Notes under the pieces: model-generated | What the model saw: only the letters and a program-made list of their open reading frames with translations | Databases searched by the model: none | Told to the model about the DNA's origin: nothing | Translations under genes and position numbers: made by a program | IMG/VR virus record: IMGVR_UViG_3300046170_000002 | Span: 1-51,151 of that record | Length of the DNA stretch: 51,151 nt | Direction: 5' to 3' (one strand) | Source: a virus | Shown: positions 8,573 through 31,687 of the stretch, piece after piece | Layout of the letters: each line of letters begins with the position of its first letter | Position numbering within the stretch: the first letter of the stretch is position 1

Positions 8573-9547
8573 TTAGTCAATTACATAGAATGCACTACAT
8601 AAAGCATCATCTCTAAGTACTTTCGCACCATAGACATGTAAGCCTCTTACTATATCACCAAATGATGATGGGTCTCTCAACACTTCAGTTGAAAGAATAG
8701 TATTAGCAGTAGCAGTTGATGAAATGTGACCAGCCATACATTTACCAGTAGCGTTAGATGTAGCAGCAACGTTGTTAGATTTGTACATGTCAAATCCTCT
8801 TAGTTTACCACTTGATACTAAACCATTTCTGATAGAGCCTTGTCCAGCGTTAAAGTCAACAGACATTAACTTAGAGTCAGCTTTAGCTAATTCTTCATAG
8901 AATGAAGGAGGAGCTACGAACCATCTACCTTCTTCAGGTACATTTTGTTCGTCTAATAGTTTAGCAAATCTTGCCATAAGGTCAATTGCATCTACACCAG
9001 TTCCGTCTGAACCTAATAGGTCTACAGAGTTAGTAGCGTGTCCTAATGTTGCATCAGCAGTTGCACTGTCTGAACCAATAATGTGGTCAGGTGATGAAGC
9101 TGAACATCCAGCAAACATAGTTGCTAGAACAGCAGCATCATATGCATCTTTAAGAGCATACGCAGCAGATGATGAAGCTACTTCTTTGAAGTTGACATGT
9201 GACATTTTAGTTTCAATATCATCTACGATGAATTTGAAAGCTTTAGCACTATCAACAACAAGAGTTGTTTCAGCATCAGTTAGTTTAGTTGCAGTTGTGT
9301 CAGAACCTCTTGTATAGTCAGATACAGAGATTACTGGTTCACCAATGATTTTTACAGAGTCTCCGTAAGCAGATATCTCACCGGCATAGTCGGTGTTAGT
9401 AATAGCTTCAACTACACTTGCCTTTCTGAAAAAGTTAAGAACTTTCTTAGAGTATATGGAAGGTAGGAAGAAACTATTAGTTTGTCCACTAACGGAGTTT
9501 GCAAAGTTTGCATCGGTATCAGTTGAGGGTTCAAAATATTGAGCCAT
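8573..9547 (-). CDS. Major capsid protein
   Basis: A 324-residue protein beginning MAQYFEPSTDTDANFANSVS. The pattern of an N-terminal arm, a KVLNFFRKASVVEAITNTDY segment, then an axial-domain-like helix with DDIETKMSHVNFKEVASSSAAY and a FVAPPSFYEEL strand, is typical of HK97-fold capsid proteins of T7-like and related marine phages. It lies between the scaffold gene and the terminator. Its GC and codon use look richer than neighbouring genes, consistent with high expression. T7 gp10 is of similar size. Confidence 0.88.
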   Translation of the reverse strand: MAQYFEPSTDTDANFANSVSGQTNSFFLPSIYSKKVLNFFRKASVVEAITNTDYAGEISAYGDSVKIIGEPVISVSDYTRGSDTTATKLTDAETTLVVDSAKAFKFIVDDIETKMSHVNFKEVASSSAAYALKDAYDAAVLATMFAGCSASSPDHIIGSDSATADATLGHATNSVDLLGSDGTGVDAIDLMARFAKLLDEQNVPEEGRWFVAPPSFYEELAKADSKLMSVDFNAGQGSIRNGLVSSGKLRGFDMYKSNNVAATSNATGKCMAGHISSTATANTILSTEVLRDPSSFGDIVRGLHVYGAKVLRDDALCSAFYVID

Positions 9548-11244: not shown

Positions 11245-11477
11245 TATATTTCCTCTTTTCTATTAATTGCTTCTTTAACCTGTAGGTCCAACTGCCCTAG
11301 GCGTTCCAGAGAATTCAGCTTCCCCTGCAACCGGTACATTTCCAATTCCGATGTTGCCACCACCAGTGCCTGTAACTCCAAGTTCTTGAGGTTGTTCAGG
11401 TGTTCCTTGAACGCCTCCCATAGGTCTTTGTTCCCCGTCAGGAGATTGAGCCTGTTCGCTATTCGTTTGTCCAGCAT
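11244..11477 (-). CDS. Overprinted small gene inside the portal 3' end, 77 residues
   Basis: Starts at ATG 11477 and overlaps the last 203 bases of the portal gene in another frame. It ends with TAATG coupling to the next gene. The protein (MLDKRIANRLNLLTGNKDLW, later LYRLQGKL-like text and KEAINRKEE) is a well-formed helical sequence. It resembles small portal-adjacent proteins of other podoviruses, unlike random shadow translation. The portal frame here encodes a low-complexity Gly/Pro/Gln tail, which would tolerate overprinting. Confidence 0.65.
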   Translation of the reverse strand: MLDKRIANRLNLLTGNKDLWEAFKEHLNNLKNLELQALVVATSELEMYRLQGKLNSLERLGQLDLQVKEAINRKEEI

Positions 11478-13488
11478 TTTGCATTCCTATTATTTGTGCC
11501 ATCATAGCTGCTTCTTCAGGGTCGTTGAGTATTTCATCAGGGTCTAAGTCTAAGCTATAAGCAAGTTCACTAACGAGTTTAGAAATCTTAACAAAAGGAG
11601 CAACAGCAGGATTTTGAGCAGTTTGTAAAAACATAGTAAGTCTTTGACTTCTAACTTCTTTTTGCATCAAGCTATTAGTACCTGTAGCTTTAACTTCTAA
11701 ATCACCTTTTACATCCAACTCGTCCTCTAGAAATTGCATGTTCCACTGGAAATAAGCTTCTCCAAGTGGCTTCAATAAAAAGTCATCAAGATTTTTGATA
11801 ACTGTTTTAATATTTAAACTTGAAGCACCTAGTAACATTGACATGCCAGAAGCAGTCCTTGTCATACTCTGTACTCCTGTTTGTCCGTGTGAATAACTAG
11901 GTATACCTGTTTGTTCATCTGCAAGTTGTCTAAACTTGTCAAACATCATTAAGTTTTCTTGTGATGTATTAGGAAACTTTAAACCGTGTATAGCTTGTCC
12001 GGGCATTCCAGCTTGTCTTCTAAAAACTTTACCCGGATATATTTCCATTGATTGTCCACCAACTAAAGCAGACTCGTCTACATCAAACACTAGAGAACCA
12101 GACATTGCTAAGTTATCTATAGCCATTCTTGCATGACCGTTCATAATCTGTTGTGAATCATCCATGTTTTCTGCTACACCAATACCAAAAAAGTTGTATG
12201 GGTTTCTTTCGTATGGGAAAGCATGATAAGGTATTCTATAAGGTGTAAATGGATTTAGTACTGCTCTTAATAAATAAGTACCACATGTCCATATATTTAC
12301 CTGTACTTCATCTAAGTCATCAACGCTGTCGGGTAAGTCAATTCCTACTTCTCTTGCATACTCTGCATCCATTATTCCCCAGTACTCTAAGACTTCGTAG
12401 TTAGTACCTACTTCTTCATCATATCTTGAGTCATCTTTTAACTGGCTTTCAAAATCTTTTTCTACGTAATTAGCACCCATTTGAATAGCATTACGTATTG
12501 CATCTTCGTCAAAGTAAGGCATGTTTCTTAACTGTCTTAGTTGACTTCTATTCATTTTGTGTCTATGAATTACATATTCACATTCTTCCATGTTAGTAGC
12601 ATTGGGGTCTGGATAAAAATCCCAACAACTTACAAACTCTATTCTAGGTACTCTAACTTCTAAAGGGTTATAGGTTCTGTTACCTTCTTCATCTGTATCC
12701 CATTTGTGAAGTTTTTTGTTAAAGTTAAATGGTCCTTTTACAATCCCTGTGCCTAGCAAAGCAGATTCTAAAAGAGCATTTCTCATTTCAGCATTACCAT
12801 TAGATTCTTCTATCTGGTCATGGATAAGTTTTTCCATTCTTCTTGCAGCTTTTTGTGCAGGAGATACTTCTAAAACTTGAGGGTCTGGACTAGCTCCGTC
12901 TTTTAATATACCTAAACTTTCTGCTTGGTCTTCAAGACTATCTTCAAAAATACCATTGTAATATGTAGCTCCGGGCTTTAAAGTTTTACCATCACCTTCG
13001 TAACCAACATCATATGGATTTACATTAGTGCCTTCTCTATTACCAATATCATCAGGCATTTCACCTTCAGTTGTTTCTAATCCGGGAATAGGATTACTTG
13101 TATCTAAATGTGCGTAGTCTGTTTCGCCTTCAGGTATTTTAGTTTCTGAAATTCCTATCGGAAATTTACCTGTACCAAAAATAACATCTACAAGTTGTCC
13201 AAAGGCTGCAAGTACTTTAGTCTTAGTAACTTTTACAAATACTCTAGACTTTTCAGATTCTCTAAACTTAATACTTTTAGCGTATAAGCCTCTATAGTTT
13301 TCGTATGCTTTTAACCAACGAGTCTCGTCAGTTTGTCTAGCGTCTTCAGCAATTGCAAATCTATCTTTAATAGTTCCTATAAGATTTCTTTGTTGGTCTT
13401 CTTCAAGAGTAAGCTGTACTCCAGACTCACCTTCAACTTCTTCGTAGATACTATCAGCGTTTAGAAATGTATTTGTATTCTCTGCCAT
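11275..13488 (-). CDS. Portal (head-tail connector) protein
   Basis: A 737-residue protein with the podovirus portal pattern: an early ETRWLKAYENYRGLY helix, RMEKLIHDQIEESNGNAEMR, FVSCWDFYPDPNATNMEECE and VIHRHKMNRSQLRQL. A helical crown segment with DEQTGIPSYSHGQTGVQ and TASGMSMLLGASSLNIK follows. Twelve copies form the DNA channel at one vertex. The last 70 residues are disordered and overlap the downstream gene. Follows terL after four bases. The family is long (about 700 or more residues) compared with T7 gp8 (about 536). Confidence 0.85.
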   Translation of the reverse strand: MAENTNTFLNADSIYEEVEGESGVQLTLEEDQQRNLIGTIKDRFAIAEDARQTDETRWLKAYENYRGLYAKSIKFRESEKSRVFVKVTKTKVLAAFGQLVDVIFGTGKFPIGISETKIPEGETDYAHLDTSNPIPGLETTEGEMPDDIGNREGTNVNPYDVGYEGDGKTLKPGATYYNGIFEDSLEDQAESLGILKDGASPDPQVLEVSPAQKAARRMEKLIHDQIEESNGNAEMRNALLESALLGTGIVKGPFNFNKKLHKWDTDEEGNRTYNPLEVRVPRIEFVSCWDFYPDPNATNMEECEYVIHRHKMNRSQLRQLRNMPYFDEDAIRNAIQMGANYVEKDFESQLKDDSRYDEEVGTNYEVLEYWGIMDAEYAREVGIDLPDSVDDLDEVQVNIWTCGTYLLRAVLNPFTPYRIPYHAFPYERNPYNFFGIGVAENMDDSQQIMNGHARMAIDNLAMSGSLVFDVDESALVGGQSMEIYPGKVFRRQAGMPGQAIHGLKFPNTSQENLMMFDKFRQLADEQTGIPSYSHGQTGVQSMTRTASGMSMLLGASSLNIKTVIKNLDDFLLKPLGEAYFQWNMQFLEDELDVKGDLEVKATGTNSLMQKEVRSQRLTMFLQTAQNPAVAPFVKISKLVSELAYSLDLDPDEILNDPEEAAMMAQIIGMQNAGQTNSEQAQSPDGEQRPMGGVQGTPEQPQELGVTGTGGGNIGIGNVPVAGEAEFSGTPRAVGPTG

Positions 13489-13491
13489 ATA

Positions 13492-15129
13492 TTAATAACC
13501 AAAAGTTGAATCAGAAGGACTAAACATATCTGATTTTATTCTTAACATCCTATCTTGTGGATGGTCCATTCTAGGTCTACTCATTAACAAATACCTTAGT
13601 GCATCATATGCGTGGTCTGCTGCATGAGTATCCACATCTTCAGGATTAGACTTAGAAAGAGGCAAAGCCTGTATTTCTTTTATTAAATTGACACATGTGT
13701 TAAATATTTGCAACCTAGGTCTTCCTGTATTATTATTCTTTCTCAGGTACTCATGTATTTGAGTCTTACCTGCTAATCTATTCTTATCAGCTCGTCTTAG
13801 TTTATGTCCTTTATTAACTAATATTTCACCAATCGTAGGACCTGTATAACCTGTCCTAGACCATGCTGCTGTATCAAGTACCCCAGCTATGGATTTTATC
13901 TCTTCCATTTCCATCTCTGTAATGGTGTCTCCGAGTGCTTCTCCTGTCAGACCTTTTTTGTATAATTCTCTATATATAATAATGGTCTTATCTTCAGGGT
14001 CGATAGCAGCCCAAAGACAGCAACTTTCTGCAGCATAACCGTAGTCTACTGCTTTAACTCTTTCCCACCACCCCGGTAATTCAAAAGGTGGTATGACGTG
14101 TGTTTCTGTCTCAAACTCTGCGAATGCTGCTCCTTCTGAGATATCCCAGTTACCTTCCAACAACTGTTTACGTTGTATGGCTGGTAAGGATTGTAGCATC
14201 CTTTCGTATTCACCGTCTTCAGCAAGGTGAGGATTATCCTGTAACAATGCTGGTATAAACTTTCTACTGAGACCGTCCTTACCTTCAAAACTTGTATTCT
14301 GTTCTGCTGGTTCTACGTATCTCTTTTTAACCCAAGCAGCACCAACACCACCGGGGTTAGCTGTACATCTTAGATAAGTCTTAATGTCTGGATTAGTAGT
14401 TCTCAAACGAGAAGCTAAATAGTTCCATCCAAACTCTGTGGGTAAGTGAGTTATCTCATCAAACCCTATCCAACTGTACGCTTGTCCTTGATAACGATAA
14501 ACATCTGCATCTCGTTCCAAGAACCCAAACTCAATCTTTGCTCCACTTGGGAACTGCCATAACTTTTCTACTTCTTTAAACTTAGCACCTTTAAAGGCTA
14601 TCGGATAAAGCTCTCGAGACTTATCTATAAGTTCTCTTAGTTCTGGCATAGACCTTCTAAGTATCAAAGCTCTATGCTCTGTTATGTGGCAGTATCGCAA
14701 CGGGTCTATTAACATTGCAAAACTTTTACCACCACCTGCTGCACCACCGTAAAGAACATCTTTCTCACCTGCAGCTAGAAAGTCTGTCTGTGGTCCTTCG
14801 TTTGGCATAAAAGCCACATGAGAACCAGTCGTATCTAAATGTTGTTGTATAGCATCAGGAAGCTCTTTTGCTTCTGATTCTGTTATAACATTAGATGTTA
14901 AAACTTTCTCTTCTTTGTCAAGTTCTTTCTTGACTCTAGCTAAACTTCTTGTTAGCTTTTTAACTTTCTTACTTTTCTTGTTAAGTTTATTCTTTGCTTG
15001 TAAAGCTAACTTAATGTCAGAAAGTTCTGAATTTTTTGGTCTACCGGGTCTAAGCCTTGGTGTACCGTCTTTCTTTAGTATATAACTCCCATCTGGGTTT
15101 GTCAAGTACTTTTTAGAATTATCTTCCAT
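13492..15129 (-). CDS. terL: Terminase large subunit
   Basis: A 545-residue packaging motor. The N-terminal ATPase has Walker A YGGAAGGGKSFAML and Walker B YSWIGFDEITH with the catalytic Glu. A motif-III-like RCTANPGG follows. The C-terminal RNase H-fold nuclease begins VKAVDYGYAAESCCLWAAI, with the first catalytic Asp in VDYG, and continues to HAADHAYDALRYLL. It pumps and cuts concatemeric DNA at the portal. A basic, Lys-rich N-terminal extension (residues 1-80) precedes the ATPase. Overlaps the upstream gene by 11 bases. Confidence 0.93.
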   Translation of the reverse strand: MEDNSKKYLTNPDGSYILKKDGTPRLRPGRPKNSELSDIKLALQAKNKLNKKSKKVKKLTRSLARVKKELDKEEKVLTSNVITESEAKELPDAIQQHLDTTGSHVAFMPNEGPQTDFLAAGEKDVLYGGAAGGGKSFAMLIDPLRYCHITEHRALILRRSMPELRELIDKSRELYPIAFKGAKFKEVEKLWQFPSGAKIEFGFLERDADVYRYQGQAYSWIGFDEITHLPTEFGWNYLASRLRTTNPDIKTYLRCTANPGGVGAAWVKKRYVEPAEQNTSFEGKDGLSRKFIPALLQDNPHLAEDGEYERMLQSLPAIQRKQLLEGNWDISEGAAFAEFETETHVIPPFELPGWWERVKAVDYGYAAESCCLWAAIDPEDKTIIIYRELYKKGLTGEALGDTITEMEMEEIKSIAGVLDTAAWSRTGYTGPTIGEILVNKGHKLRRADKNRLAGKTQIHEYLRKNNNTGRPRLQIFNTCVNLIKEIQALPLSKSNPEDVDTHAADHAYDALRYLLMSRPRMDHPQDRMLRIKSDMFSPSDSTFGY

Positions 15130-16363: not shown

Positions 16364-16542
16364 TAGTGTACCTTCCTTTCTTCTAATTGTATATCGTGTT
16401 GTAATTCTTGTATCTCCCCAAGAACCAACAATCCGTATTGTATTGCTATTCTATTTGCTTCAGCGACTGTATCAGCTTTAATGTATGGACCTATTGCAGC
16501 TCCATCTTCATTAACATGCTCAGTTATCCAAAGCCTAGTCAT
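16363..16542 (-). CDS. Hypothetical 59-residue protein after terS
   Basis: Start ATG 16542 (MTRLWITEHVNEDG) is preferred over 16551, which lies inside the GAGGATG ribosome site. Contains IKADTVAEANRIAIQYGLLV, a pattern reminiscent of a short alpha/beta fold. It overlaps the end of the TerS-like gene. Function unknown. Confidence 0.55.
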   Translation of the reverse strand: MTRLWITEHVNEDGAAIGPYIKADTVAEANRIAIQYGLLVLGEIQELQHDIQLEERKVH

Positions 16543-16963
16543 AGTCTGCATCCTCTGCTTCTATGATTACCGGTGCTTTATCAGGCATAAGAAAGATACC
16601 ACCACTGTTCATGTTGTGATTAATATCTACTTTATCTACTCTACTAACACCAACTCTATCTAATAACGTCTGTGCAGCAGTAAGTTTATTAGCTGCTTGT
16701 ACTATAGGTTTCTTAGATTCCATTATCTCTACAAGTTTAAAAGCTGCTTTAGGGGCTGAGTTAGCTAGTATCTCTTGAGTGAGTTCTAGTATCTCAGACT
16801 TTAAAGTCTTTACAACATGATGGTAATGGGAAGAATAACCAGCAAGTTCTGCTGCTTTCTTTGCATCACCACTAGTATTGACTAGGTGTTCTAGGAAAGA
16901 CTTCTGCTTATCTGTTAATTCTCTTTTAGTTGTTGTGTTATCTACACTTGGTAATATAGCCAT
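16535..16963 (-). CDS. terS: Terminase small subunit-like protein, first gene of leftward operon
   Basis: The N-terminal DNA-binding helix-turn-helix pattern LTDKQKSFLEHLVN followed by KAAELAGYS is typical of small terminase subunits. A helical oligomerisation region and an acidic C-terminus (IIEAEDADYD) follow. It recognises the packaging site and loads TerL. Start ATG 16963 (MAILPSVDNT) is chosen because the upstream ATG 16978 lies inside the promoter -10. The predicted transcription start coincides with this ATG, implying a leaderless mRNA. Distance to terL is filled by seven tiny genes. Confidence 0.75.
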   Translation of the reverse strand: MAILPSVDNTTTKRELTDKQKSFLEHLVNTSGDAKKAAELAGYSSHYHHVVKTLKSEILELTQEILANSAPKAAFKLVEIMESKKPIVQAANKLTAAQTLLDRVGVSRVDKVDINHNMNSGGIFLMPDKAPVIIEAEDADYD

Positions 16964-16969
16964 GCATCT

Positions 16970-16998
16970 AGTATACACATCGATTCTAAACTTGTCAA
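16970..16998 (-). promoter_or_regulatory. Sigma-70 type promoter, leftward (TerS operon)
   Basis: The minus strand reads TTGACA (16998-16993), a 17-base spacer, then TATACT (16975-16970). This is consensus -35, consensus spacing and a one-mismatch -10. The start of transcription should fall at about 16963, exactly the A of the TerS ATG. Confidence 0.85.
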
Positions 16999-17023
16999 GC
17001 TTTAAAGTTTTTTTATGAAAGCC

Positions 17024-17052
17024 TTGACAAAAGTGGAATGCGTTGTTATACT
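17024..17052 (+). promoter_or_regulatory. Sigma-70 type promoter, rightward into long non-coding leader
   Basis: TTGACA (17024-17029), a 17-base spacer, then TATACT (17047-17052). Same hexamers as the leftward promoter, with 25 bases between the two -35 boxes. No gene starts for about 950 bases downstream, so its product would be a long leader or a non-coding RNA. Confidence 0.82.
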
Positions 17053-17953
17053 AAACGTAGTGTCCCCTCCCGGGTCAACATATACCCACAACACCCTCAT
17101 CAAACAATTGACTGCCTAGTAGACAGGAACTTATTGTGGGCGAAATAAATACCTTTAAAGTCTTTAAAGATTTTAGAGTTTTAGTGTCGGGGCGTTAACT
17201 AGTTCTAGTTAATGACCATTATTCTAGAAAATGTATAACCATGCTATAGATATATAGGGTAGAGGGTATGGTCTCCTGCCTCCCCCTTAATAGATTTGAG
17301 ATTGCCTAAATTGGACATCTTCAAAACTCTATAACTTGTAAGGCTTCGGAGTCTTTGGGCTTTACCAGACTCTGTTCTTTTGGTAGCGTTCTCTTTATCT
17401 CTGTAAACATCTACAGAGCCTTACATTCAGAAGCTTCAGAGGATTCTTGAAGTTCTTAACGCCTTTCATCTTTAGCAAGACTATTGTCAAACAGATTCCA
17501 TGTTGCTCTGAAGTTTCTGCATTCATAGCCTCACATTCTTGTCAAACTTTTCACCTCTGCTTGACACTCTCTCAGTGGGCTTTTGTTCTATCTTTGTCAA
17601 CACTTATTATATCTGCATGGTATTTTCCATTGCAATTATCCTTTAAGAAACTCCAATCGTTAGACTAGAATGTAGTATTCACTCGGTTAAAGTTCACTCC
17701 TCTTCACTATCTGATTCAATACTCTAAAGCTTTAAAGTCAATCCTCCTAAGTCCTTGTTCCATTTTAGCCTGAGAAACTCAACTCTATAGTTTCACTCCT
17801 AATTCTATTAAAATCATAACATCTCCAAATATTTTCTAGTTTACAATGACATAAAGACTTTAAAGTGACAAATGTTTACAGTATTTCCTCGAAGACTCGG
17901 AAATCTATAAAACTTTTGTTCCCAAAACCTCACAAAACTCAAGCATTTGCAAC
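17053..17953 (+). other. Long non-coding region with repeated CTTTAAAG palindromes and small hairpins
   Basis: No convincing gene is seen on either strand in about 900 bases. CTTTAAAG occurs at 17153, 17162, 17730 and 17858 (and at 17000 just upstream). Hairpins occur at 17195-17212 (TTAACTAG/CTAGTTAA), 17399-17418 (CTCTGTA/TACAGAG) and 17883-17904 (ATTTCC/GGAAAT). TTGTCAA recurs around 17486-17600 without matching -10 boxes. Candidate roles are an untranslated RNA, a packaging (cos/pac) signal next to terS, or a regulator-binding region. Confidence 0.6.
17195..17212. repeat. Perfect inverted repeat TTAACTAG-TT-CTAGTTAA
   Basis: An 8-bp perfect inverted repeat with a two-base centre lies about 140 bases downstream of the rightward promoter and just after two CTTTAAAG palindromes. 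The short centre fits a protein dimer site better than an RNA hairpin. Confidence 0.6.
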
Positions 17954-17982
17954 TTGAAAATCTTCATGTTTTTGTGTATTCT
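17954..17982 (+). promoter_or_regulatory. Candidate promoter for the first rightward gene
   Basis: TTGAAA (17954-17959), a 17-base spacer, then TATTCT (17977-17982), 18 bases before the ATG at 18001. Weaker than the other promoters in the region, but with ideal spacing. Confidence 0.5.
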
Positions 17983-18000
17983 TTAATATATGGAGATAAC

Positions 18001-18183
18001 ATGATTTTAATAGATTACTCAAACAATGAAACTATAGAGTTTCAAACAATTTCTCAGGCTAAAATGTTCACTGCAGACTTACTCGAAGTTGACATTAAAG
18101 CTTTAGGAATCAGATGTGAAGACTCATCTGACTTTAACCTCCTAGAAGACTACATTCTAGGGCTAACTCATTCCATTTCTTAA
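18001..18183 (+). CDS. Hypothetical early protein, 60 residues
   Basis: Begins MILIDYSNNETIEFQTISQA behind TATGGAGATAAC, a good ribosome site which decides this start over an upstream in-frame ATG at 17947. Acidic, small alpha/beta-like protein. First gene of the rightward early cluster. No family recognised; possible host-takeover factor. Confidence 0.6.
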   Translation: MILIDYSNNETIEFQTISQAKMFTADLLEVDIKALGIRCEDSSDFNLLEDYILGLTHSIS

Positions 18184-18194
18184 AGGAGAATATT

Positions 18195-18467
18195 ATGGAA
18201 AATACATTTGATATAAACGCTTTTGACAAAGATAGAACTTCAAGCCCAGCTTCGTTCAAACAATGTCAAGCTATCGGCTACAAGTTTGCCAAGAAAGGTT
18301 CAGCTATGAACTGGAAACTTCAGAAGCAAATTACAGGCTGTCTGTATAGTCTTGCTAAAGATGAAAGACTAAACTTCAAGAAAGCTCATCAGCTTCTTCA
18401 GGGTAAGTCTCTTCCGAAGGTTTACCTCGATAAAATCGACCACTACCTAAAAGAAAAGGTCAGCTAA
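18195..18467 (+). CDS. Hypothetical early protein, 90 residues
   Basis: Begins MENTFDINAFDKDRTSSPAS and contains KQCQAIGYKFAKKGSAMNWK and LNFKKAHQLLQGKSLPKVYL. The helical, basic pattern is similar to small early proteins seen in other marine podoviruses. RBS AAAGGAG before the ATG. It is followed by a terminator, so the two first genes form a short transcript. Function unknown. Confidence 0.68.
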   Translation: MENTFDINAFDKDRTSSPASFKQCQAIGYKFAKKGSAMNWKLQKQITGCLYSLAKDERLNFKKAHQLLQGKSLPKVYLDKIDHYLKEKVS

Positions 18468-18477
18468 AACCTCAAAG

Positions 18478-18511
18478 ACTCTCTCGCCTTACAAGTGAGA
18501 GAGTTTCTTTA
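18478..18511 (+). terminator. Rho-independent terminator after the first two early genes
   Basis: ACTCTCTC (18478-18485) pairs with GAGAGAGT (18497-18504) over an 11-base loop, followed by a T-rich tail TTCTTTATG. It begins 11 bases past the stop codon. Confidence 0.72.
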
Positions 18512-18589
18512 TGTCTGCATAAAATCTCAAATCTAATCTTAATAGTGAAATTACTTTGTAATTGCTCTTTATGAGGGCAGTCGACCACA

Positions 18590-18860
18590 CCAAAGAAGTT
18601 AAATAAGTTAATTAAGTTAAGATAAAACTCGAGCTTTAAGTTTAAGTCGGTTGGGCTGGTAATTGAGGGCAAATCTGTGGATAACTTATCTAAATTTATG
18701 TATATCTTATGTATATCCTGTTAATTACTTGTGGATAAGTATAAATTATCTGTGGATATCCTGTGAATTTAAGTTTAAATTTAAGTTTGAATTTAAGTAT
18801 AATTTTAAGGTTGTGTTTAAGTCCTAGCAAACTTAAAGTATAAGTATATCTTAAGTTTGT
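18590..18860. other. Putative replication origin: DnaA-type boxes beside AT-rich TTTAAGTTT repeats
   Basis: The gap between genes at 18467 and 18957 holds two perfect DnaA-box matches, TGTGGATAA at 18676 and 18730, and a near match TGTGGATAT at 18751. Right next to them (18765-18865) is a very AT-rich run with reiterated TTTAAGTTT/AATTTAAGT words, resembling a DNA unwinding element. A 9-bp inverted repeat CAAACTTAA/TTAAGTTTG (18828-18836, 18851-18859) follows. GC is far below the surrounding genes. The origin role is inferred from architecture. Confidence 0.62.
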
Positions 18861-18896
18861 TAAGACGCTTGACTTTTGCCAACGCTTCGCTAAAAT
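18850..18896 (+). promoter_or_regulatory. Promoter module A with conserved upstream inverted repeat
   Basis: CTTAAGTTTGTTAAGA (18850-18865) lies three bases upstream of TTGACT (18869-18874). A 16-base spacer and TAAAAT (18891-18896) follow. TGTCGGCTCAGCA at 18900-18912 overlaps the expected transcription start. The same upstream and downstream words flank the promoter at 19272. Confidence 0.72.
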
Positions 18897-18956
18897 GGGT
18901 GTCGGCTCAGCAGGGAACAAACCCCCGCTTAATTTTTAAAACAATCGGAGATGATT

Positions 18957-19238
18957 ATGAAAACGAAATGTAAAAACCCAAATGGTAAATCTAATATGCA
19001 AGTCATTCAAGACTCAAAATTGAGTGCTTTAAAATTTAATAGCCTTGACAAAGTTGAACGGTATATCAATGAGTTAGGCTATGTTTTCAAAGTAAGAAAT
19101 TCTGTTAAAGAAGATAGGTCTGTAATTTATAGACATAAGTTTCCTAAAAATGGACATGTGTTTCTTAAATCAACCTATGACTTTTTGAATGACAACACTA
19201 TGGAAATGGGAACAGTTTGGACGATTAGCAAATTTTAA
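18957..19238 (+). CDS. Hypothetical early protein, 93 residues
   Basis: Start ATG 18957 (MKTKCKNPNGKSNMQVIQDS) is chosen because the other ATG (18951) lies inside the GGAGATG ribosome site. Small basic alpha/beta protein with YINELGYVFKVRNS and MEMGTVWTI. It is transcribed alone from promoter module A. Function unknown. Confidence 0.6.
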   Translation: MKTKCKNPNGKSNMQVIQDSKLSALKFNSLDKVERYINELGYVFKVRNSVKEDRSVIYRHKFPKNGHVFLKSTYDFLNDNTMEMGTVWTISKF

Positions 19239-19251
19239 ATATAAATATATA

Positions 19252-19300
19252 CTTAAGTTTGTTAAGAACCCTTGACACCGACCGAGAAAGTTGCTATAAT
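19252..19300 (+). promoter_or_regulatory. Promoter module B, perfect sigma-70 consensus
   Basis: CTTAAGTTTGTTAAGA (19252-19267) stands four bases before TTGACA (19272-19277). A 17-base spacer and TATAAT (19295-19300) follow, a full consensus match. TGTCGGTCAGCA follows at 19302-19313. A 7-bp hairpin GAGACTT/AAGTCTC lies in the leader (19321-19336). Confidence 0.92.
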
Positions 19301-19354
19301 TTGTCGGTCAGCAACCAACCGAGACTTCAAAGTCTCATAAATATAGGAGATATT

Positions 19355-19468
19355 ATGGAAGAACGAGACCACTTAGAATTTTTAGATTTTATGACCGAAC
19401 AGGAATTAAAAGCTGAAACAATTGAAGCTAATAATGAATTAGCTGAAGATATTAACCCAATAGTATAG
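19355..19468 (+). CDS. Small acidic early protein, 37 residues
   Basis: Begins MEERDHLEFLDFMTEQELKA. The start at 19355 is decided by AGGAGATATT and by the promoter lying where a longer frame would begin. Strongly acidic. Directly downstream of the strongest promoter, so it would be highly expressed early. Acidic mini-proteins of this kind can inhibit host enzymes, but no specific function is recognised. Confidence 0.55.
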   Translation: MEERDHLEFLDFMTEQELKAETIEANNELAEDINPIV

Positions 19469-19477
19469 GAGATAAAC

Positions 19478-19675
19478 ATGGCAGATATTAGATTACACAA
19501 AGTAACTAAAATTGAAATTAAAAAAGTAGACAAAGGTAATGGATATCTTTGTAGAGATATTGTTATTTATAACAAAGAATGGAATAGTGATTTAGGAGAC
19601 TATATAACTATGGAAACAACTTTAGATTTGTTTTTAGAAAATAAGTCTGCAACTAAATTAGTCTACGAGAAATAA
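19478..19675 (+). CDS. Hypothetical protein, 65 residues
   Basis: Begins MADIRLHKVTKIEIKKVDKG and continues as alternating beta strands (IVIYNKEWNSDLG, TTLDLFLENKS). RBS AGGAGAT before the ATG, nine bases after the previous stop. Looks like a small beta-fold protein of early phage clusters; no family named. Confidence 0.6.
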   Translation: MADIRLHKVTKIEIKKVDKGNGYLCRDIVIYNKEWNSDLGDYITMETTLDLFLENKSATKLVYEK

Positions 19676-19735
19676 ATCCGAGAAGATGTAAGGCATAAAT
19701 TATTAAATTAAAAACTGCTTTCTTGAAGATATATA

Positions 19736-19761
19736 GTGCTAGGTATCACTAAAAAGTGCCT
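19736..19761 (+). repeat. 26-base hairpin repeat, copy 1
   Basis: GTGCTAGGTATCACT followed by AAAAAGTGCCT. AGG/CCT and CACT/AGTG can pair with a TAT bulge. It lies 32 bases before the ATG at 19793. Copy 2 at 20298 matches in 24 of 26 positions. Confidence 0.7.
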
Positions 19762-19792
19762 ACAATATTAACTAAAAATATGGAGATATATT

Positions 19793-20200
19793 ATGGCGAA
19801 AATCGTCTATGGAAAAAGAAATACTACAACCGTTGATTCAATATATGACTACGGAAGTATAAGTGAAAAAGCTATTTGGAACTATGCAAATAGTCTAGGT
19901 GTAAATATTATTAGAGTTAGAGCTAGTAAAGAAAGATATGAAACTACTACAGGAGATACTTTCAATGGGTATCATTCAGGTAAAGTATCTATCTATCAAC
20001 AAAAGCCTAAACCAAATAAACCTTTACATTTTGTAAGAAGAACACCACTTGGTAAAGACAACAAAGGTATGCAAATACTTGAAGTTGCTGATAATATTGA
20101 TACACAACAAGTTTTAAAAACTTTACAAGACTATGAGTATTATACAACCAATGGTTTCTTTGCTAGGTTGGGTATAACATTCAGAAGAATGTTTGCTTAA
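19793..20200 (+). CDS. Hypothetical protein, 135 residues
   Basis: Begins MAKIVYGKRNTTTVDSIYDY. It contains SEKAIWNYANSLGVNIIRVR, a central KVSIYQQKPKPNKPLHFVRR and a basic C-terminus GITFRRMFA. RBS TGGAGATAT. Basic and mixed alpha/beta, flanked by the two copies of the 26-base hairpin repeat. No family recognised. Confidence 0.65.
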   Translation: MAKIVYGKRNTTTVDSIYDYGSISEKAIWNYANSLGVNIIRVRASKERYETTTGDTFNGYHSGKVSIYQQKPKPNKPLHFVRRTPLGKDNKGMQILEVADNIDTQQVLKTLQDYEYYTTNGFFARLGITFRRMFA

Positions 20201-20297
20201 AAGATTTAGTGTTTAACGAGCCTATCATAAAATCCTTAAGTGGTCATAGGTTGAGAGTTGGAGTAAGTGCTAGAAACCGTTTTCCAACACACTAAGA

Positions 20298-20323
20298 GTG
20301 CTAGGTATCACTTTAAAGTGCCT
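20298..20323 (+). repeat. 26-base hairpin repeat, copy 2
   Basis: GTGCTAGGTATCACT followed by TTAAAGTGCCT. Here CACTTTAAAGTG is a perfect 12-bp palindrome that contains the CTTTAAAG word of the control region. It lies 25 bases upstream of the ATG at 20348. Confidence 0.7.
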
Positions 20324-20347
20324 CTTTTAACTTAATGGAGATAAAAT

Positions 20348-20524
20348 ATGTTTGATGAAATATTAGAATGTGTCATCTGTGAAGGTGATATAGAACAAAA
20401 GAAAACAGAAGATGGTAAAGTATATTGGAATCAAGGAGAAAACGCAGAACCTTATGCAGAAGGTAGATGTTGTTCTTATTGTCATTCAGTATTTGTTTTA
20501 CCTACAAGAATGGAGAGAATATAA
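20348..20524 (+). CDS. Zinc-ribbon protein, 58 residues
   Basis: Begins MFDEILECVICEGDIEQKKT. The pattern CVIC, about 30 residues, then CSYC with GRC before it gives two metal-binding knuckles. The central DGKVYWNQGENAEPYAEGRC block is typical of small zinc-ribbon proteins in marine phages. RBS ATGGAGATAAAAT. Its TAA overlaps the next ATG. Probably binds nucleic acid or a host protein. Confidence 0.75.
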   Translation: MFDEILECVICEGDIEQKKTEDGKVYWNQGENAEPYAEGRCCSYCHSVFVLPTRMERI

Positions 20525-20850
20525 TGCCAAAAAAACAAGTAGGATTTCAGAATCCAAAATACGAAACATATAGATTTATATTTAATTATATATGGGAAGA
20601 TAACGAAGAACTTATACAGCTTTCAACTCATAGTTGTACATTTAATAATGAGAGAGAAGAAGTAAAGATGTTAGAGTATCCTAAACAACAAGCTATGGAA
20701 TTGTTTAAGATAATGGCTACTGCACACTTCTTTAAAGGTAATGCACATAAAAGAATACTTGACTACAATGTAAGTTGTATCATGGAGATATCCTCTAAGA
20801 GTTTAAACAACTCAGCAAGAGGTCATAAAATATATATTGAGGAGGTATAA
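20524..20850 (+). CDS. Hypothetical protein, 108 residues
   Basis: Begins MPKKQVGFQNPKYETYRFIF, its ATG overlapping the stop of the zinc-ribbon gene with GGAGAG upstream. Contains IWEDNEELIQLSTHSCTFNN and YPKQQAMELFKIMATAHFFK. A longer in-frame start at 20467 would overlap the zinc-ribbon gene and is rejected. Unknown function. Confidence 0.62.
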   Translation: MPKKQVGFQNPKYETYRFIFNYIWEDNEELIQLSTHSCTFNNEREEVKMLEYPKQQAMELFKIMATAHFFKGNAHKRILDYNVSCIMEISSKSLNNSARGHKIYIEEV

Positions 20851-20851
20851 C

Positions 20852-21013
20852 ATGGGATACGAAGATTTAGCAAATGTAAATAGAGTGATAGAGTTTATAC
20901 ATGAGTATAAGAACTGTGGCTTAAAAGAATCTGGAAGATTAAATGATTTAAATATTGGAGAAGCTATCTCTTATTTAGAAGAGATAAGACAAGAAATAAT
21001 AGATAATATATAG
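20852..21013 (+). CDS. Small protein, 53 residues
   Basis: Begins MGYEDLANVNRVIEFIHEYK and ends RQEIIDNI. It follows GGAGGTATAAC and sits one base after the previous stop; the next gene starts nine bases later. All-helical and acidic. Tight packing supports it as real. Function unknown. Confidence 0.58.
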   Translation: MGYEDLANVNRVIEFIHEYKNCGLKESGRLNDLNIGEAISYLEEIRQEIIDNI

Positions 21014-21021
21014 GAGAAATT

Positions 21022-21729
21022 ATGAGCTATAAACTATTGAGTTTTAACAACCCTAAAGTTTTGAAGGGTGAGAAGATAAGTAATTACTTAACTGCTATTA
21101 TGCATTTGAGTCCAATCAACACCAAGATATGTCCTTATCAGGACGTTGCAGGGTGCAAGGAAGCCTGTCTAAATACAGCAGGTAGGGGTGGCATTATAAA
21201 AAAGGGTGAAACCACTAATGTCATACAAGAAGCTAGAAAGCGTAAGACTAAATTGTATTTGGAGGACAGAGAAACCTTCATGACTTACCTTATTACAGAC
21301 GTTATGAAGTTTGTAAGATACTGTGAAAAGAAAGATAAGCTTCCTTGCATAAGATTGAATGGCACTAGTGATATACAATGGGAGACTATTAAGATAGACG
21401 GACAAAATATCTTTGATATCTTTCCGACTGTACAATTCTATGATTACACAAAGATACCTACAAGAAAAGTAGACCAACATAAAAACTATCACTTGACATG
21501 GAGCTACTCAGAAGCTAATATGAAGTACGCCAATCTGTTTGACAAGATTGCTTATAACATAGCAGTTGTATTCAATGGTAATATGCCTATACATTTCAAG
21601 GGTAGAGAGGTAGTCAATGGAGATGAAAGTGATTTAAGATTTTTAGATAAGAGCAATGTGATTGTTGGTCTGAAAGCAAAGGGCAAAGCACGTAAAGATA
21701 CTAGTGGCTTTGTAATACAAACTACATAG
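21022..21729 (+). CDS. Conserved phage protein with Cys cluster (Gp88-like), 235 residues
   Basis: The pattern ICPYQDVAGCKEACLNTAGR followed by a helical ARKRKTKLYLEDRETFMTYL matches, from memory, a phage family related to mycobacteriophage gene product 88. Three spaced cysteines suggest a metal or iron-sulfur site. The second half has VQFYDYTKIPTRKV and NYHLTWSYSEANMKYA, resembling a TIM-barrel-like fold. The biochemical role of the family is unknown to me. RBS AGGAGAAATT. Confidence 0.7.
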   Translation: MSYKLLSFNNPKVLKGEKISNYLTAIMHLSPINTKICPYQDVAGCKEACLNTAGRGGIIKKGETTNVIQEARKRKTKLYLEDRETFMTYLITDVMKFVRYCEKKDKLPCIRLNGTSDIQWETIKIDGQNIFDIFPTVQFYDYTKIPTRKVDQHKNYHLTWSYSEANMKYANLFDKIAYNIAVVFNGNMPIHFKGREVVNGDESDLRFLDKSNVIVGLKAKGKARKDTSGFVIQTT

Positions 21730-21737
21730 GAGATAAT

Positions 21738-21875
21738 ATGAAAATAATAGGTTGGAAATTAGTTGCTTATTGGGAAGATGATACTAAAGAAGATGTATCT
21801 CTTGACATGCCTTATTGGGTAACTAAAAGAATAGATAATTTTTTAGATGAATTAGAGGAGGAAAATGATGAGTAA
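21738..21875 (+). CDS. Small acidic protein, 45 residues
   Basis: Begins MKIIGWKLVAYWEDDTKEDV behind AGGAGATAAT and ends in an acidic tail (LDELEEENDE). It overlaps the next gene's ATGATG by 11 bases. Function unknown. Confidence 0.58.
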   Translation: MKIIGWKLVAYWEDDTKEDVSLDMPYWVTKRIDNFLDELEEENDE

Positions 21876-22068
21876 TATACACAACGAACAAACACAAGAA
21901 CAAATATATGAAAAAATATATGAACAAGTTTTAGAAGATGATTCTAAAGGCTTATTAGAAACTGAAATAAGAGACATGCAACTTATATATAATTTGCACC
22001 CTGATGATGATAGAGAAGAAATACTATGCTTCATAGCTGAAAGTATTTATTATAACCAACACAACTAA
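21865..22068 (+). CDS. Small acidic helical protein, 67 residues
   Basis: Begins MMSNIHNEQTQEQIYEKIYE with GAGGAGG just upstream, inside the previous gene. Acidic, with LHPDDDREEILCFIAESI. The second Met is an equally good start. Function unknown. Confidence 0.55.
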   Translation: MMSNIHNEQTQEQIYEKIYEQVLEDDSKGLLETEIRDMQLIYNLHPDDDREEILCFIAESIYYNQHN

Positions 22069-24607: not shown

Positions 24608-26272
24608 ATGCAACAAGAAAGAACTCAATTTATTAAACACAAATTACCCTGCCCTAAATGTAGTAGCAGTGATGCTGTATCTCTCAATGAGAATGGCTCT
24701 GCTAAATGCTTTAGTTGTAATACATTCTTTACAGACTATGAGAATGAATCAACAGGAAAGGTAATTGAAATGACAAGTAAACCCAAACCCGATAACACAT
24801 TTCTTACATCATACACTGGTGCTTATGGTGCTTTGACTGACAGAGGTATCTCTGAAAACACAGCAACTAAGTTTGGTGTTAAGATAGTCAAGGATAGAAA
24901 CAATAATGTTGCCCAACATATTTACCCATACTTTAATGGTAATGAAGTTGTTGGTACTAAGACAAGGTTTGTATCTAACAAAGGCTTCACATGTAATGGA
25001 ACATTCGAGGACACAGGTTTGTTTGGAGAACAACTGTGTGGAAACACAGGTGGTAAGTACCTGACTATTACCGAAGGAGAGTGTGATGCTATGGCAGTAC
25101 ATGAACTCTTCCAAGGTAAGTGGTCGGTAGTATCTTTAAAGCGTGGGGCTTCCTCTGCTGTTAGAGATATACGAGAGAGTATTGAATTTGTAGAATCATT
25201 TGATAATGTAGTTCTATGTTTTGATAATGACAAGGCAGGTAAAGATGCAGCTAAAGCTGTAGCTAAAATACTTAAGCCTAACAAAACTAGAATCATGTCA
25301 TTCCCAAATGGATTCAAAGATGCAAACGAAATGCTTAAACAGAAGAAGTTCCAAGAGTTTACCCAAGCTTGGTGGAACTCTAAAACATACACTCCTTCAG
25401 GTATCATGGAGCTATCATCTCAAAAGAATGATTGGCTACATAGAGAAGAGAAAGAGAGTATTGCATATCCTTGGGAGGGACTGAACAAGAAACTCTATGG
25501 TATGCGTAAAGGAGAACTGGTAACACTTACAGGTGGTACAGGTCTCGGTAAGTCTAGTGTGACAAGAGAACTAGAACACTGGCTTATTAAGAATACAGAA
25601 GACAATGTAGGTATCGTAGCACTTGAAGAGAACTGGCTAAGAACTGCTGATGGTATTTTATCTATCGAAGCTAACGACAGGATATACTTATCAGAGAAGC
25701 GTAAGAATTATACAGACGATGACCTCATGAGTTTGTTTGATAAGACTATACCTGAAGGTAGAGTGTTTATCCATTCTCATTTAGGTGCTACTGACATTGA
25801 TGATATCTTTGCCAAGCTTAGATATATTATTGTAGGATGTGAATGTAAATGGGTCGTAGTTGACCACTTACATATGCTTGTCAATGTTCTTCATGAAGGT
25901 GATGAAAGACGTGGTATTGATATGCTAATGAATAGATTACGTAGTCTTGTTGAAGAGACTGGTGTAGGTATGATATTAGTATCTCACTTACGTAGAGCAG
26001 CAGGTGATAAAGGACATGAGCAAGGTATCGAAGTATCATTGTCCCACCTTAAAGGCTCACAAGGTATAGCACAGCTATCGGATTGTGTAATTGCACTGGA
26101 AAGAAATCAACAGGCAACTAATCCGGAAGAAGCTAACACCACAAAAGTAAGGGTACTAAAGTCTAGATATACAGGGGACACAGGATTAGCTTGTGGTCTC
26201 CGATATAATTCTGATACAGGTAGACTTTTTGAAGTATCAGAGGAGGAAACATTTGACAATGAACAATTCTAA
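24608..26272 (+). CDS. Primase-helicase (T7 gp4-like)
   Basis: A 554-residue bifunctional protein. The N-terminal zinc ribbon has CPKC near residue 15 and CFSC near 35. A Toprim primase core has TITEGECDAMAV and the metal-binding LCFDNDKAG. The RecA-like DnaB-type helicase has Walker A TGGTGLGKSS, Walker B KWVVVDHLHM, and VSHLRRA. It unwinds DNA 5' to 3' and makes primers at the fork. Ends overlapping the polymerase gene by 14 bases. About the same length as T7 gp4 (566). Confidence 0.93.
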   Translation: MQQERTQFIKHKLPCPKCSSSDAVSLNENGSAKCFSCNTFFTDYENESTGKVIEMTSKPKPDNTFLTSYTGAYGALTDRGISENTATKFGVKIVKDRNNNVAQHIYPYFNGNEVVGTKTRFVSNKGFTCNGTFEDTGLFGEQLCGNTGGKYLTITEGECDAMAVHELFQGKWSVVSLKRGASSAVRDIRESIEFVESFDNVVLCFDNDKAGKDAAKAVAKILKPNKTRIMSFPNGFKDANEMLKQKKFQEFTQAWWNSKTYTPSGIMELSSQKNDWLHREEKESIAYPWEGLNKKLYGMRKGELVTLTGGTGLGKSSVTRELEHWLIKNTEDNVGIVALEENWLRTADGILSIEANDRIYLSEKRKNYTDDDLMSLFDKTIPEGRVFIHSHLGATDIDDIFAKLRYIIVGCECKWVVVDHLHMLVNVLHEGDERRGIDMLMNRLRSLVEETGVGMILVSHLRRAAGDKGHEQGIEVSLSHLKGSQGIAQLSDCVIALERNQQATNPEEANTTKVRVLKSRYTGDTGLACGLRYNSDTGRLFEVSEEETFDNEQF

Positions 26273-27992
26273 AATAATATTTGACATAGAAGCTGATGGG
26301 TTAAATCCTAATAATGTATGGTGTATTGTAGCCAAAGAACTAAATGGCACCTCACATACATTTGATAACACACAGATAGAAGAAGGTATTAAATTCTTAC
26401 AAGAAGCTGACACACTCATAGGTCACAACATTATAGGCTATGATATACCTGTACTAGAAAAACTTTATAGTGCTAAGTTTAATTGTAAGATAGAAGATAC
26501 ACTTGTTATGTCAAGACTATTCAATCCTGTTCGTGAGAACGGACATAGTTTGAAAGCTTGGGGTTGGCGTGTTGGTTGTTTAAAACAAGAACAACCTGAA
26601 GACTTTGATTCCTATACTCCTGAAATGTTAGAGTATTGTATTCAAGATGTTAAACTAAATGAAGCTGTGTATAATTACCTTATTAATGAGGGTAAAATAT
26701 TCAGTAAAGAATGTATAGATTTAGAACATCGTGTAGCTAAGATAATGAAAGAGCAAGAGAAGACTGGTTTCTTTTTTAATACTCAACAAGCTATGGAACT
26801 TCTTGCTGAACTAAAAGCAAAGCAACTTGCTGTTGAAGATGAAGTACATAATACTTTCAAGCCTAAGTTAGTTGATGATAAATTAGTTACACCTTATGTC
26901 AGAAAAGATGGTGAGTTATCTAAACGTGGATTGACTGATGAAGAATATCGTAACTGTATTAAAACTCAAAACGTTGAACCTTTTATGAGACTGAAGTTAG
27001 TTGACTTTAATCTTGGTAGTCGTAAACAAATTGGAGAATACTTAATTGATTTTGGTTGGGTTCCTAAAAAGTTTACACCAACAGGACAACCTATTGTAGA
27101 TGAAGGTACTCTCAAAAAGATTGAACACATCAGAGAAGCTAAGTTGATTGCAGACTTTTTACTATATCAGAAGCGTATAGCACAAGTCACATCTTGGATA
27201 GATGAACTTAAAGATGATAGAGTTCATGGCAGTGTAATACCTAACGGTACTATCACAGGTAGAATGACACATAGGAATCCTAACATGGCACAAGTACCTA
27301 ATGCAGGTAGTCCATATGGTAAAGAGTGTCGTTCATGTTGGACTATCCCTGATGGATACAAACTTGTAGGTATAGATGCTAGTGGATTAGAACTTAGAAT
27401 GTTAGCACATTACATGGATGACTCTGATTATATTGAAGAAGTTATCAACGGTGATATACATACGACTAATCAAAACCTTGCAGGTCTAAAGACTAGAGAC
27501 CAAGCCAAGACATTTATATATGCTTTGGTATATGGTGCAGGTGATGCTAAGATAGGTTCAGTTGCAGGTGGTGGATTAAAGAAAGGTAAAGAACTCAAAC
27601 AAACTTTCTTCAAGAACTTACCATCACTTAGAACTTTAAAAGATAAAGTACAGAAAGCTTCTGAACGAGGATTCCTCAAAGGATTAGATGGTCGTAAGAT
27701 ATATGTACGTAGCCAACATGCTGCACTCAATACTTTATTACAGGGTGGTGGTGCTATAGTTATGAAGAAAGCTATGTGTATATTACAAGAACTTATAAAC
27801 TTAAATTCTCTTGATGCTAAGTTTGTAGCTAACATTCATGACGAATGGCAGATACAAGTAAAAGAATCTCAAGCTGAATTTGTAGGACAACTAGGAGTTG
27901 AAGCTATTGAGAAAGCAAGTCAACACTTTAACATGCGTTGTCCTTTAACAGGAGAATATAAAATAGGAGAGAATTGGTATGAAACTCATTAA
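26259..27992 (+). CDS. polA: Family A DNA polymerase with 3'-5' exonuclease
   Basis: A 577-residue polymerase. Exonuclease motifs are FDIEADGL (Exo I), GHNIIGYDIP (Exo II) and YCIQDVKLN (Exo III). Polymerase motif A is DASGLELRML, motif B RDQAKTFIYALVYG and motif C NIHDEWQIQV. The residue equivalent to E. coli Pol I Phe762 is Tyr, as in T7. There is no 5' nuclease domain, as expected in phages. Start ATG 26259 (MNNSKIIFD) follows GGAGGAAAC. Overlaps the next gene by 14 bases. Confidence 0.93.
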   Translation: MNNSKIIFDIEADGLNPNNVWCIVAKELNGTSHTFDNTQIEEGIKFLQEADTLIGHNIIGYDIPVLEKLYSAKFNCKIEDTLVMSRLFNPVRENGHSLKAWGWRVGCLKQEQPEDFDSYTPEMLEYCIQDVKLNEAVYNYLINEGKIFSKECIDLEHRVAKIMKEQEKTGFFFNTQQAMELLAELKAKQLAVEDEVHNTFKPKLVDDKLVTPYVRKDGELSKRGLTDEEYRNCIKTQNVEPFMRLKLVDFNLGSRKQIGEYLIDFGWVPKKFTPTGQPIVDEGTLKKIEHIREAKLIADFLLYQKRIAQVTSWIDELKDDRVHGSVIPNGTITGRMTHRNPNMAQVPNAGSPYGKECRSCWTIPDGYKLVGIDASGLELRMLAHYMDDSDYIEEVINGDIHTTNQNLAGLKTRDQAKTFIYALVYGAGDAKIGSVAGGGLKKGKELKQTFFKNLPSLRTLKDKVQKASERGFLKGLDGRKIYVRSQHAALNTLLQGGGAIVMKKAMCILQELINLNSLDAKFVANIHDEWQIQVKESQAEFVGQLGVEAIEKASQHFNMRCPLTGEYKIGENWYETH

Positions 27993-31678: not shown

Positions 31679-31687
31679 GGAAAAATT

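What the first reader, a model, noticed from the sequence alone, without database searches (positions are those of the whole stretch)
18590..18865. oriC-like segment in a phage: DnaA boxes plus AT-rich repeats
Two perfect TGTGGATAA boxes and one near match lie within 85 bases, directly beside a roughly 100-base AT-rich tract of TTTAAGTTT-type repeats and a 9-bp inverted repeat. This is the architecture of a DnaA-dependent bacterial origin. T7-like phages usually start from RNA polymerase transcripts. With no phage polymerase in the window, borrowing host DnaA would be a different initiation strategy.
Basis: partly seen in the sequence, partly recalled or inferred. Interest (0 to 1): 0.7.

Follow-up and report, generated by a model that had tools for sequence, protein, structure and literature searches.

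The report
Host-DnaA box array in marine phage
Between its two gene blocks, this uncultured ocean virus carries a small, evolutionarily conserved row of binding sites for the bacterium's own replication-starter protein next to easily opened DNA, so it probably borrows the host's starter to begin copying itself, though no experiment shows this yet.

Summary
TGTGGATAA occurs exactly twice in the 51-kb record (18676, 18730), plus an 8/9 match at 18751, all on one strand in a 483-bp noncoding gap. A pair within 60 bp appeared in 0 of 1000 simulated windows. Boxes are 54 and 21 bp apart, inside an ~11-bp-periodic array abutting a 79% AT tract. Homologous gaps of 15 relatives and three more distant phages hold 1-4 perfect boxes, every one in the same direction. 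Adjacent spacings are 21, 22, 43, 44, 54 or 64 bp: whole helical turns (one exception, 188). In box-rich records checked, all perfect boxes lie here. The record has no phage RNA polymerase (positive control rang) and no DnaA gene.

Best reading: a host-DnaA array with an unwinding tract, probably the phage's origin. DnaA recognition is well supported; origin function is inferred. Against it: a sister clade with about 86% identical TerS, and isolates HTVC115P/HTVC103P, lack the boxes; the GC-skew minimum coincides with divergent transcription. Denser arrays occur in other marine podovirus-like contigs, so this is a variant of a wider kind.

Also found alongside: a conserved ~1.2-kb self-complementary locus (17324-18505).

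The parts
18476..18506 (+). intrinsic terminator that ends the upstream g18195 transcript and insulates the region
   Evidence: the flanking sequence is retained in relatives
18596..18650 (.). left AT-rich repeats (AAGTTAAAT/AAGTTAATT/AAGTTAAGA...), second candidate unwinding tract, kept also in box-less relatives
   Evidence: sequence; relatives
18648..18670 (+). G-rich element GGTTGGGCTGGTAATTGAGGGC, one or two copies about 30 bp apart in relatives, with or without boxes; function unknown
18676..18684 (+). perfect DnaA box 1, TGTGGATAA
   Evidence: conserved in relatives
18699..18727 (+). weak box-like units TGTATATCT, TGTATATCC, TGTTAATTA starting at 18699, 18710 and 18719, in helical phase with the boxes
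   Evidence: sequence; lag-11 autocorrelation z 4.4
18730..18738 (+). perfect DnaA box 2, TGTGGATAA, 54 bp (5 turns) from box 1
18751..18759 (+). near-perfect box 3, TGTGGATAT, 21 bp (2 turns) from box 2; perfect TGTGGATAA at this place in several relatives
18763..18865 (.). 79% AT tract with 12-bp AATTTAAGTTTA-type repeats (18766-18813), candidate DNA unwinding element; starts within about 13 bp of the last box
18828..18859 (.). 9-bp inverted repeat CAAACTTAA / TTAAGTTTG
18850..18864 (+). CTTAAGTTTGTTAAG motif, exact second copy at 19252; lies 18-19 bp upstream of the -35 hexamer where one is found in relatives: UP element or operator of the early promoter
18869..18896 (+). sigma-70-type early promoter TTGACT-16-TAAAAT for the gene at 18951

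Best explanation
The segment is a binding array for the host initiator DnaA, placed beside easily melted DNA in the noncoding gap between the leftward virion genes and the rightward early genes, and it most likely acts as the phage's replication origin. Proposed steps: host DnaA binds the two or three strong boxes (inferred from identity to the bacterial box); weaker units at about 11-bp steps let a head-to-tail DnaA oligomer form on one face of the helix (inferred from phasing); the adjoining AT-rich repeats open (inferred); the phage's own T7-type primase-helicase (24608-26272) loads on the single strands and the family A polymerase (26193-27992) starts synthesis (inferred). Shown here: boxes, phasing, single orientation, conservation, adjacency to AT-rich DNA, and no PF00940 RNA polymerase or DnaA gene in this record.
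For: Only two perfect boxes in the record, both here; clustering not reached in 1000 simulations. Homologous gaps of 15 relatives hold 1-4 perfect boxes (at least two each counting 8/9 matches); over all 53 unique gaps surveyed, 42 perfect boxes in 19 gaps (window included), 42 of 42 on one strand, adjacent spacings 21, 22, 43, 44, 54, 64 plus one of 188. Lag-11 periodicity is the strongest lag in 20 of 53 gaps against 5 of about 200 random segments (z>=4.5: 18 against 1), including several box-less relatives, as expected of 9-bp boxes with 2-bp linkers; same-direction boxes 2 bp apart gave maximal complex formation for Thermotoga DnaA (PMC10316083). In box-rich records checked, all perfect boxes lie at this place. 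The last box abuts an AT tract in the lowest 0.05-3.6% of duplex stability of its locus in all box-bearing genomes measured except L136. Box-to-promoter-motif distance varies (73-122 bp) while motif to -35 stays 18-19 bp, so a phase-dependent promoter role is less likely. No RNA polymerase (positive control rings) and no DnaA C-domain in the record. Bacterial genomes show the same paired boxes, with zero hits for the reversed-pattern control in 289 genomes.
Against: A sister clade with about 86% identical TerS and nearly the same early genes lacks the boxes, as do HTVC115P, HTVC103P and the examined gaps of HTVC033P and HMO-2011, so DnaA boxes are not needed by this phage type as a whole. The skew minimum is explained by gene direction. 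The AT tract is unstable but not exceptional (2.35th percentile; other tracts are less stable). The boxes are oriented with the main AT tract on the side opposite to that of E. coli R1 (from memory of oriC). Whether this host's DnaA reads TTATCCACA was not tested; the host is unknown. Related genomes are not independent samples.
Confidence: 0.55

Rival explanations
1. DnaA array used for gene control: host DnaA bound here times or tunes the early promoter at 18869 (or a leftward promoter), not replication.
For: DnaA is an established transcription factor (PMC8203912, abstract seen). The array sits upstream of a sigma-70-type promoter with a conserved CTTAAGTTTGTTAAG motif.
Against: The nearest box is about 110 bp from the -35 hexamer and the spacing varies by tens of bp between relatives; promoter and motif persist in similar form where boxes are absent.
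Confidence: 0.17
2. DnaA decoy: boxes on many phage copies titrate host DnaA and stop host chromosome initiation.
For: Boxes are consensus (high-affinity type) and multiply with phage copy number; DnaA titration is discussed for E. coli (PMC12371093, abstract seen).
Against: Only two to four boxes per genome, and a decoy needs no helical phasing, single orientation or adjacent AT tract.
Confidence: 0.08
3. The 11-bp array is read by another protein (a phage regulator, TerS at a packaging site, or an injection-stop signal as proposed for another phage), and the DnaA-box match is secondary.
For: The 11-bp phasing persists in relatives whose units are not DnaA boxes (L120, L111, L113, L141). The locus lies in the gap upstream of TerS. 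PMC13250531 reports repeats and DnaA boxes in a phage injection-stop signal.
Against: Perfect 9-mers are regained or retained in rearranged arrays; the one early gene found to go with the boxes has no recognised DNA-binding domain and was not matched to any initiator.
Confidence: 0.17
4. Chance similarity in AT-rich DNA.
For: Loose TTWTNCACA matches are no commoner than chance across the record.
Against: Simulations, conservation, orientation and spacing.
Confidence: 0.03

Closest known systems
Bacterial oriC with a single-direction DnaA-box cluster and DNA unwinding element (E. coli left half, H. pylori oriC2, T. maritima oriC; PMC10316083)
   Same: Consensus boxes, mostly or wholly one direction, about 11-bp phasing with weak units, adjacent AT-rich DNA.
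   Different: Sits in a phage genome without dnaA, has fewer strong boxes, main AT tract on the opposite side to that of E. coli R1, and function untested.
Phage P1 oriR and other replicons that recruit host DnaA (from general knowledge)
   Same: Tandem DnaA boxes beside AT-rich DNA in a mobile replicon.
   Different: P1 uses RepA iterons and a plasmid prophage state; here no initiator gene was recognised and no integrase hit appeared among the proteins scanned.
Phage injection-stop signal described as rich in repeats, inverted repeats and DnaA boxes (PMC13250531; phage T5 in my understanding)
   Same: DnaA boxes and repeats in a noncoding phage region.
   Different: Proposed for halting DNA injection; A1/A2 homologues were not searched for here.
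T7 primary origin (RNA-polymerase-primed, AT-rich tract; general knowledge)
   Same: T7-type primase-helicase and family A polymerase; AT-rich tract near a promoter.
   Different: No phage RNA polymerase; AT tract is upstream of the promoter; DnaA boxes present.
Dense DnaA-box arrays in other marine podovirus-like contigs (L260, L261, L266, L267, L281, L298)
   Same: Viral contigs with some homologous primase, polymerase, GP88 or portal protein; boxes mostly 11-33 bp apart, mostly noncoding.
   Different: Five to nine perfect boxes, in both directions in some, several followed by a GGGGGAGGGGG-type element; distant from the window (about 23-48% protein identity for most proteins).

Membership tests
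DnaA-dependent origin (oriC type) | cluster of consensus DnaA boxes beyond chance | tested here: met
DnaA-dependent origin (oriC type) | boxes in helical phase, able to seat a DnaA oligomer | tested here: met
   spacings near multiples of 10.7 bp and lag-11 periodicity; seating itself not testable
DnaA-dependent origin (oriC type) | AT-rich unwinding element beside the boxes | tested here: met
   21% G+C with 12-bp repeats; among the less stable parts of the locus but not the least stable
DnaA-dependent origin (oriC type) | DnaA-trio or TAG repeats between boxes and unwinding element | not tested
   AAG-containing repeats are visible on both sides; no test made
DnaA-dependent origin (oriC type) | GC-skew minimum caused by replication | tested here: inconclusive
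   minimum near 18 kb but confounded by gene direction
DnaA-dependent origin (oriC type) | DnaA binding and initiation at the site | not testable with these tools
   needs footprinting and replication mapping
T7-type RNA-polymerase-primed origin | phage single-subunit RNA polymerase (PF00940) | tested here: not met
   absent in the record and nine relatives; positive control HTVC019P 4e-106. The record may lack a few kb
Iteron origin with phage-encoded initiator | recognisable initiator gene | tested here: inconclusive
   no DnaA C-domain and no initiator among ten proteins scanned with Pfam; diverged initiators could be missed
HMO-2011-type phages (PMC9038755 definition) | HMO-2011-type TerL and other virion genes | tested here: met
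   TerL 47-49% to HMO-2011-type isolates and 66-67% to HTVC103P-type
HMO-2011-type phages (PMC9038755 definition) | DNA polymerase with partial DnaJ domain, two CXXCXGXG motifs | tested here: not met
   no such motif in the translated polymerase; nearer to the HTVC103P-related groups of PMC8528129

The most novel reading that the evidence does not exclude
The 1.9-kb gap 16979-18950 is one compound replication-control locus: a conserved ~1.2-kb self-complementary transcript next to a host-DnaA array that fires the phage origin, giving a podovirus without its own RNA polymerase an origin ruled jointly by host DnaA and a giant hairpin RNA.
Probability: 0.12. Interest if true: 0.85.

Novelty: new variant of a known kind. 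Interest (0 to 1): 0.6.

Why it matters
How podoviruses with T7-type replication proteins but no RNA polymerase start replication is not known to me, and the marine groups concerned are abundant. A host-DnaA origin would tie phage replication to the host's initiation state, would give a reason for host specificity at the replication step, and is testable by footprinting and coverage mapping. The arrays in many distantly related viral contigs suggest that use of host DnaA may be commoner among marine phages than recognised.

Tried and rejected
DNA-level search of GenBank phages with 18000-21800: no match. Skew as evidence: rejected as confounded. Exact-phase TGT counting at period 11: uninformative because steps are 9-12 bp. 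First script on isolate gaps failed on a file name and was rerun. A gene that would explain box presence or absence: only a 67-aa ORF (about 21865-22068) is in 9/9 box+ and 0/7 box- contigs, with a different 98-aa ORF in 7/7 box-; neither was recognised as an initiator. The PF00940 search rang in no control, so it was repeated with HTVC019P. A blastn self-comparison missed the large inverted repeat; local alignment found it. Paper searches for phage DnaA origins returned little; a T5 review looked up by DOI was not held. Rfam: no hit in the window.

Full report
WHAT WAS CLAIMED AND WHAT IS THERE. The window is an IMG/VR virus record of 51,151 bases with no end repeats, possibly lacking a few kb. 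Leftward virion genes (TerS 16535-16978, TerL 13492-15129, portal 11275-13488, capsid 8573-9547) meet rightward early and replication genes (primase-helicase 24608-26272, family A polymerase 26193-27992, ribonucleotide reductase 29783-32663) around 17-18 kb. The finding lies in the noncoding gap between a 90-aa gene (18195-18467) and a 95-aa gene (18951-19238). Two perfect TGTGGATAA boxes (18676, 18730), one 8/9 match (18751), a 79% AT tract with 12-bp repeats (18763-18865) and a 9-bp inverted repeat (18828-18836 / 18851-18859) are as described.

CHANCE. Two perfect boxes in the record are not remarkable (0.71 expected) and the loose consensus is not enriched. The clustering is: no pair within 60 bp in 1000 simulated windows and no two boxes in 20,000 simulations of the gap itself.

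CONSERVATION. Relatives were collected with primase, TerL and an early protein, and the homologous gap was cut from 76 loci, 53 of them unique. The window and 15 relatives form a set with 1-4 perfect boxes each; three more distant gaps (L136, L139, L142) also have boxes. All 42 perfect boxes point the same way. Adjacent spacings are 21 (9 times), 22, 43 (3), 44, 54 (7), 64, and one of 188: apart from the last, close to whole turns of 10.7 bp. Boxes change number and place between relatives but keep the phase. Weak units in the window start at 18699, 18710, 18719 and 18762, again in phase. Lag 11 is the strongest autocorrelation lag in 20 of 53 gaps against 5 of about 200 random segments; at z>=4.5 it is 18 against 1. 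Phasing also occurs in several gaps whose units are not DnaA boxes, for example L120, L111, L113 and L141. These sequences are related, so the counts are not independent tests. In box-rich records checked over their held length (L035, L136, L023, L043), every perfect box is in this gap.

WHERE IT IS MISSING. On a TerS tree the window's own clade and most of its wider clade keep the boxes, while one sister clade (L051, L053, L080, L091, L092, L093) and L020 have none. These keep the G-rich element, the left AT repeats and the early promoter and nearly all early genes. HTVC115P and HTVC103P have no perfect box anywhere; HTVC033P and HMO-2011 have a single one each, outside the examined gaps. So the boxes are a feature of part of the group, not of all of it.

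MECHANISM. Nine-base boxes with two-base linkers in one direction are an arrangement on which DnaA oligomers form head to tail; E. coli's half-origins have direction-sharing boxes, and for Thermotoga DnaA two same-direction boxes gave maximal complex formation at 2-bp separation (PMC10316083). The last strong box abuts an AT tract in the lowest 0.05-3.6% of stability in all measured genomes except L136; in the window it is the 2.35th percentile, so unstable but not unique. No phage RNA polymerase was found in the record, with a working positive control, and no DnaA C-terminal domain. Host DnaA opening the tract for the phage primase-helicase is therefore the best-supported path; every step after DnaA recognition is inference. 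The distance from last box to promoter motif varies (73-122 bp) while motif to -35 is 18-19 bp, which speaks against a phase-dependent promoter role. The GC-skew minimum coincides with divergent transcription and cannot be used. In E. coli, as I recall it, the unwinding element lies on the other side of R1; the left AT repeats (18596-18650), behind a G-rich element, are thus a second candidate.

CONTEXT. Of 289 genomes drawn from the class of an alphaproteobacterium, 36 have closely spaced pairs and none matches the reversed control. Among 80 viral loci, 54 have three or more perfect boxes within 300 bp, and 19 share some protein similarity with the window. Several distant podovirus-like contigs have five to nine boxes in a row, mostly in noncoding DNA, some followed by a G-rich element. 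I found no paper in the held library that describes such phage arrays as origins; the library is incomplete. A held paper notes DnaA boxes in a phage injection-stop signal (PMC13250531), a rival that sequence alone does not exclude. By virion genes the phage belongs with the HMO-2011/HTVC103P groups, but its polymerase lacks the CXXCXGXG motifs used to define HMO-2011-type phages.

A SECOND FEATURE NEXT DOOR. Directly left of the array, 17324-17885 and 17932-18505 are imperfect inverted copies. All 18 genomes tested have such a pair, 65-78% complementary; in 25 of 25 genomes the left arm matches its own right arm better than any other genome's (mean score 446 against 119; left arms among themselves 116). 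The right arm carries the conserved 90-aa gene; no long reading frame persists in the left arm. A promoter-like TTGACA-17-TATAAT-type site precedes the left arm in 25 of 25 and in the window a terminator follows the right arm. The window's plus strand folds at -512 kcal/mol over 1461 nt. Transition-type mispairs are mostly A-C rather than G-U on the plus strand (937 against 260), so in most genomes the minus strand folds better; this could mean a minus-strand RNA or a strand-biased mutation process, for example lagging-strand exposure, and I cannot tell which. The repeat was not found in the stretches of HTVC115P, HTVC103P, HTVC033P and HMO-2011 examined. Repeated copying of the arm (gene conversion) is an alternative to selection for pairing.

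VERDICT. Observation confirmed; DnaA-box identity well supported; origin function likely but unproven (0.55). New variant of a known kind.

Noticed in passing
17324-17885 and 17932-18505: Giant imperfect inverted repeat (about 580-bp arms, ~1.2 kb in all) with a conserved gene in the right arm; arms co-vary lineage by lineage in 25 of 25 genomes. Possibly a new class of long hairpin RNA or a repeatedly recopied arm; no Rfam match in the window.
   Followed up: partly
17024-17052 (+) and 16998-16970 (-): Two strong promoter-like sites (TTGACA-17-TATACT) back to back just right of TerS; a rightward one is present in 25 of 25 genomes.
   Followed up: partly
33004-34017 (-): 337-aa protein with an adenylate/guanylate cyclase catalytic domain (PF00211, 1e-20) and a weak CHASE2 match: a phage-borne nucleotide cyclase.
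   Followed up: no
31688-32221 and 32223-32663 (+): Ribonucleotide reductase small subunit split into two adjacent reading frames matching consecutive parts of one family (phrog_86).
   Followed up: no
21865-22068 (+): 67-aa reading frame present in 9 of 9 box-bearing and 0 of 7 box-less relatives; a different 98-aa frame is in 7 of 7 box-less ones. May be divergence rather than replacement.
   Followed up: partly
L260, L261, L266, L267, L281, L298: Other viral contigs carry five to nine perfect DnaA boxes in mostly noncoding arrays, several followed by a GGGGGAGGGGG-type element and a shared CACAAAATAGGTCAAAATTAG-like sequence.
   Followed up: partly
21022-21729 (+): Early protein of the GP88 family (PF17338, 2.7e-39), conserved across the group, function unknown.
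   Followed up: no
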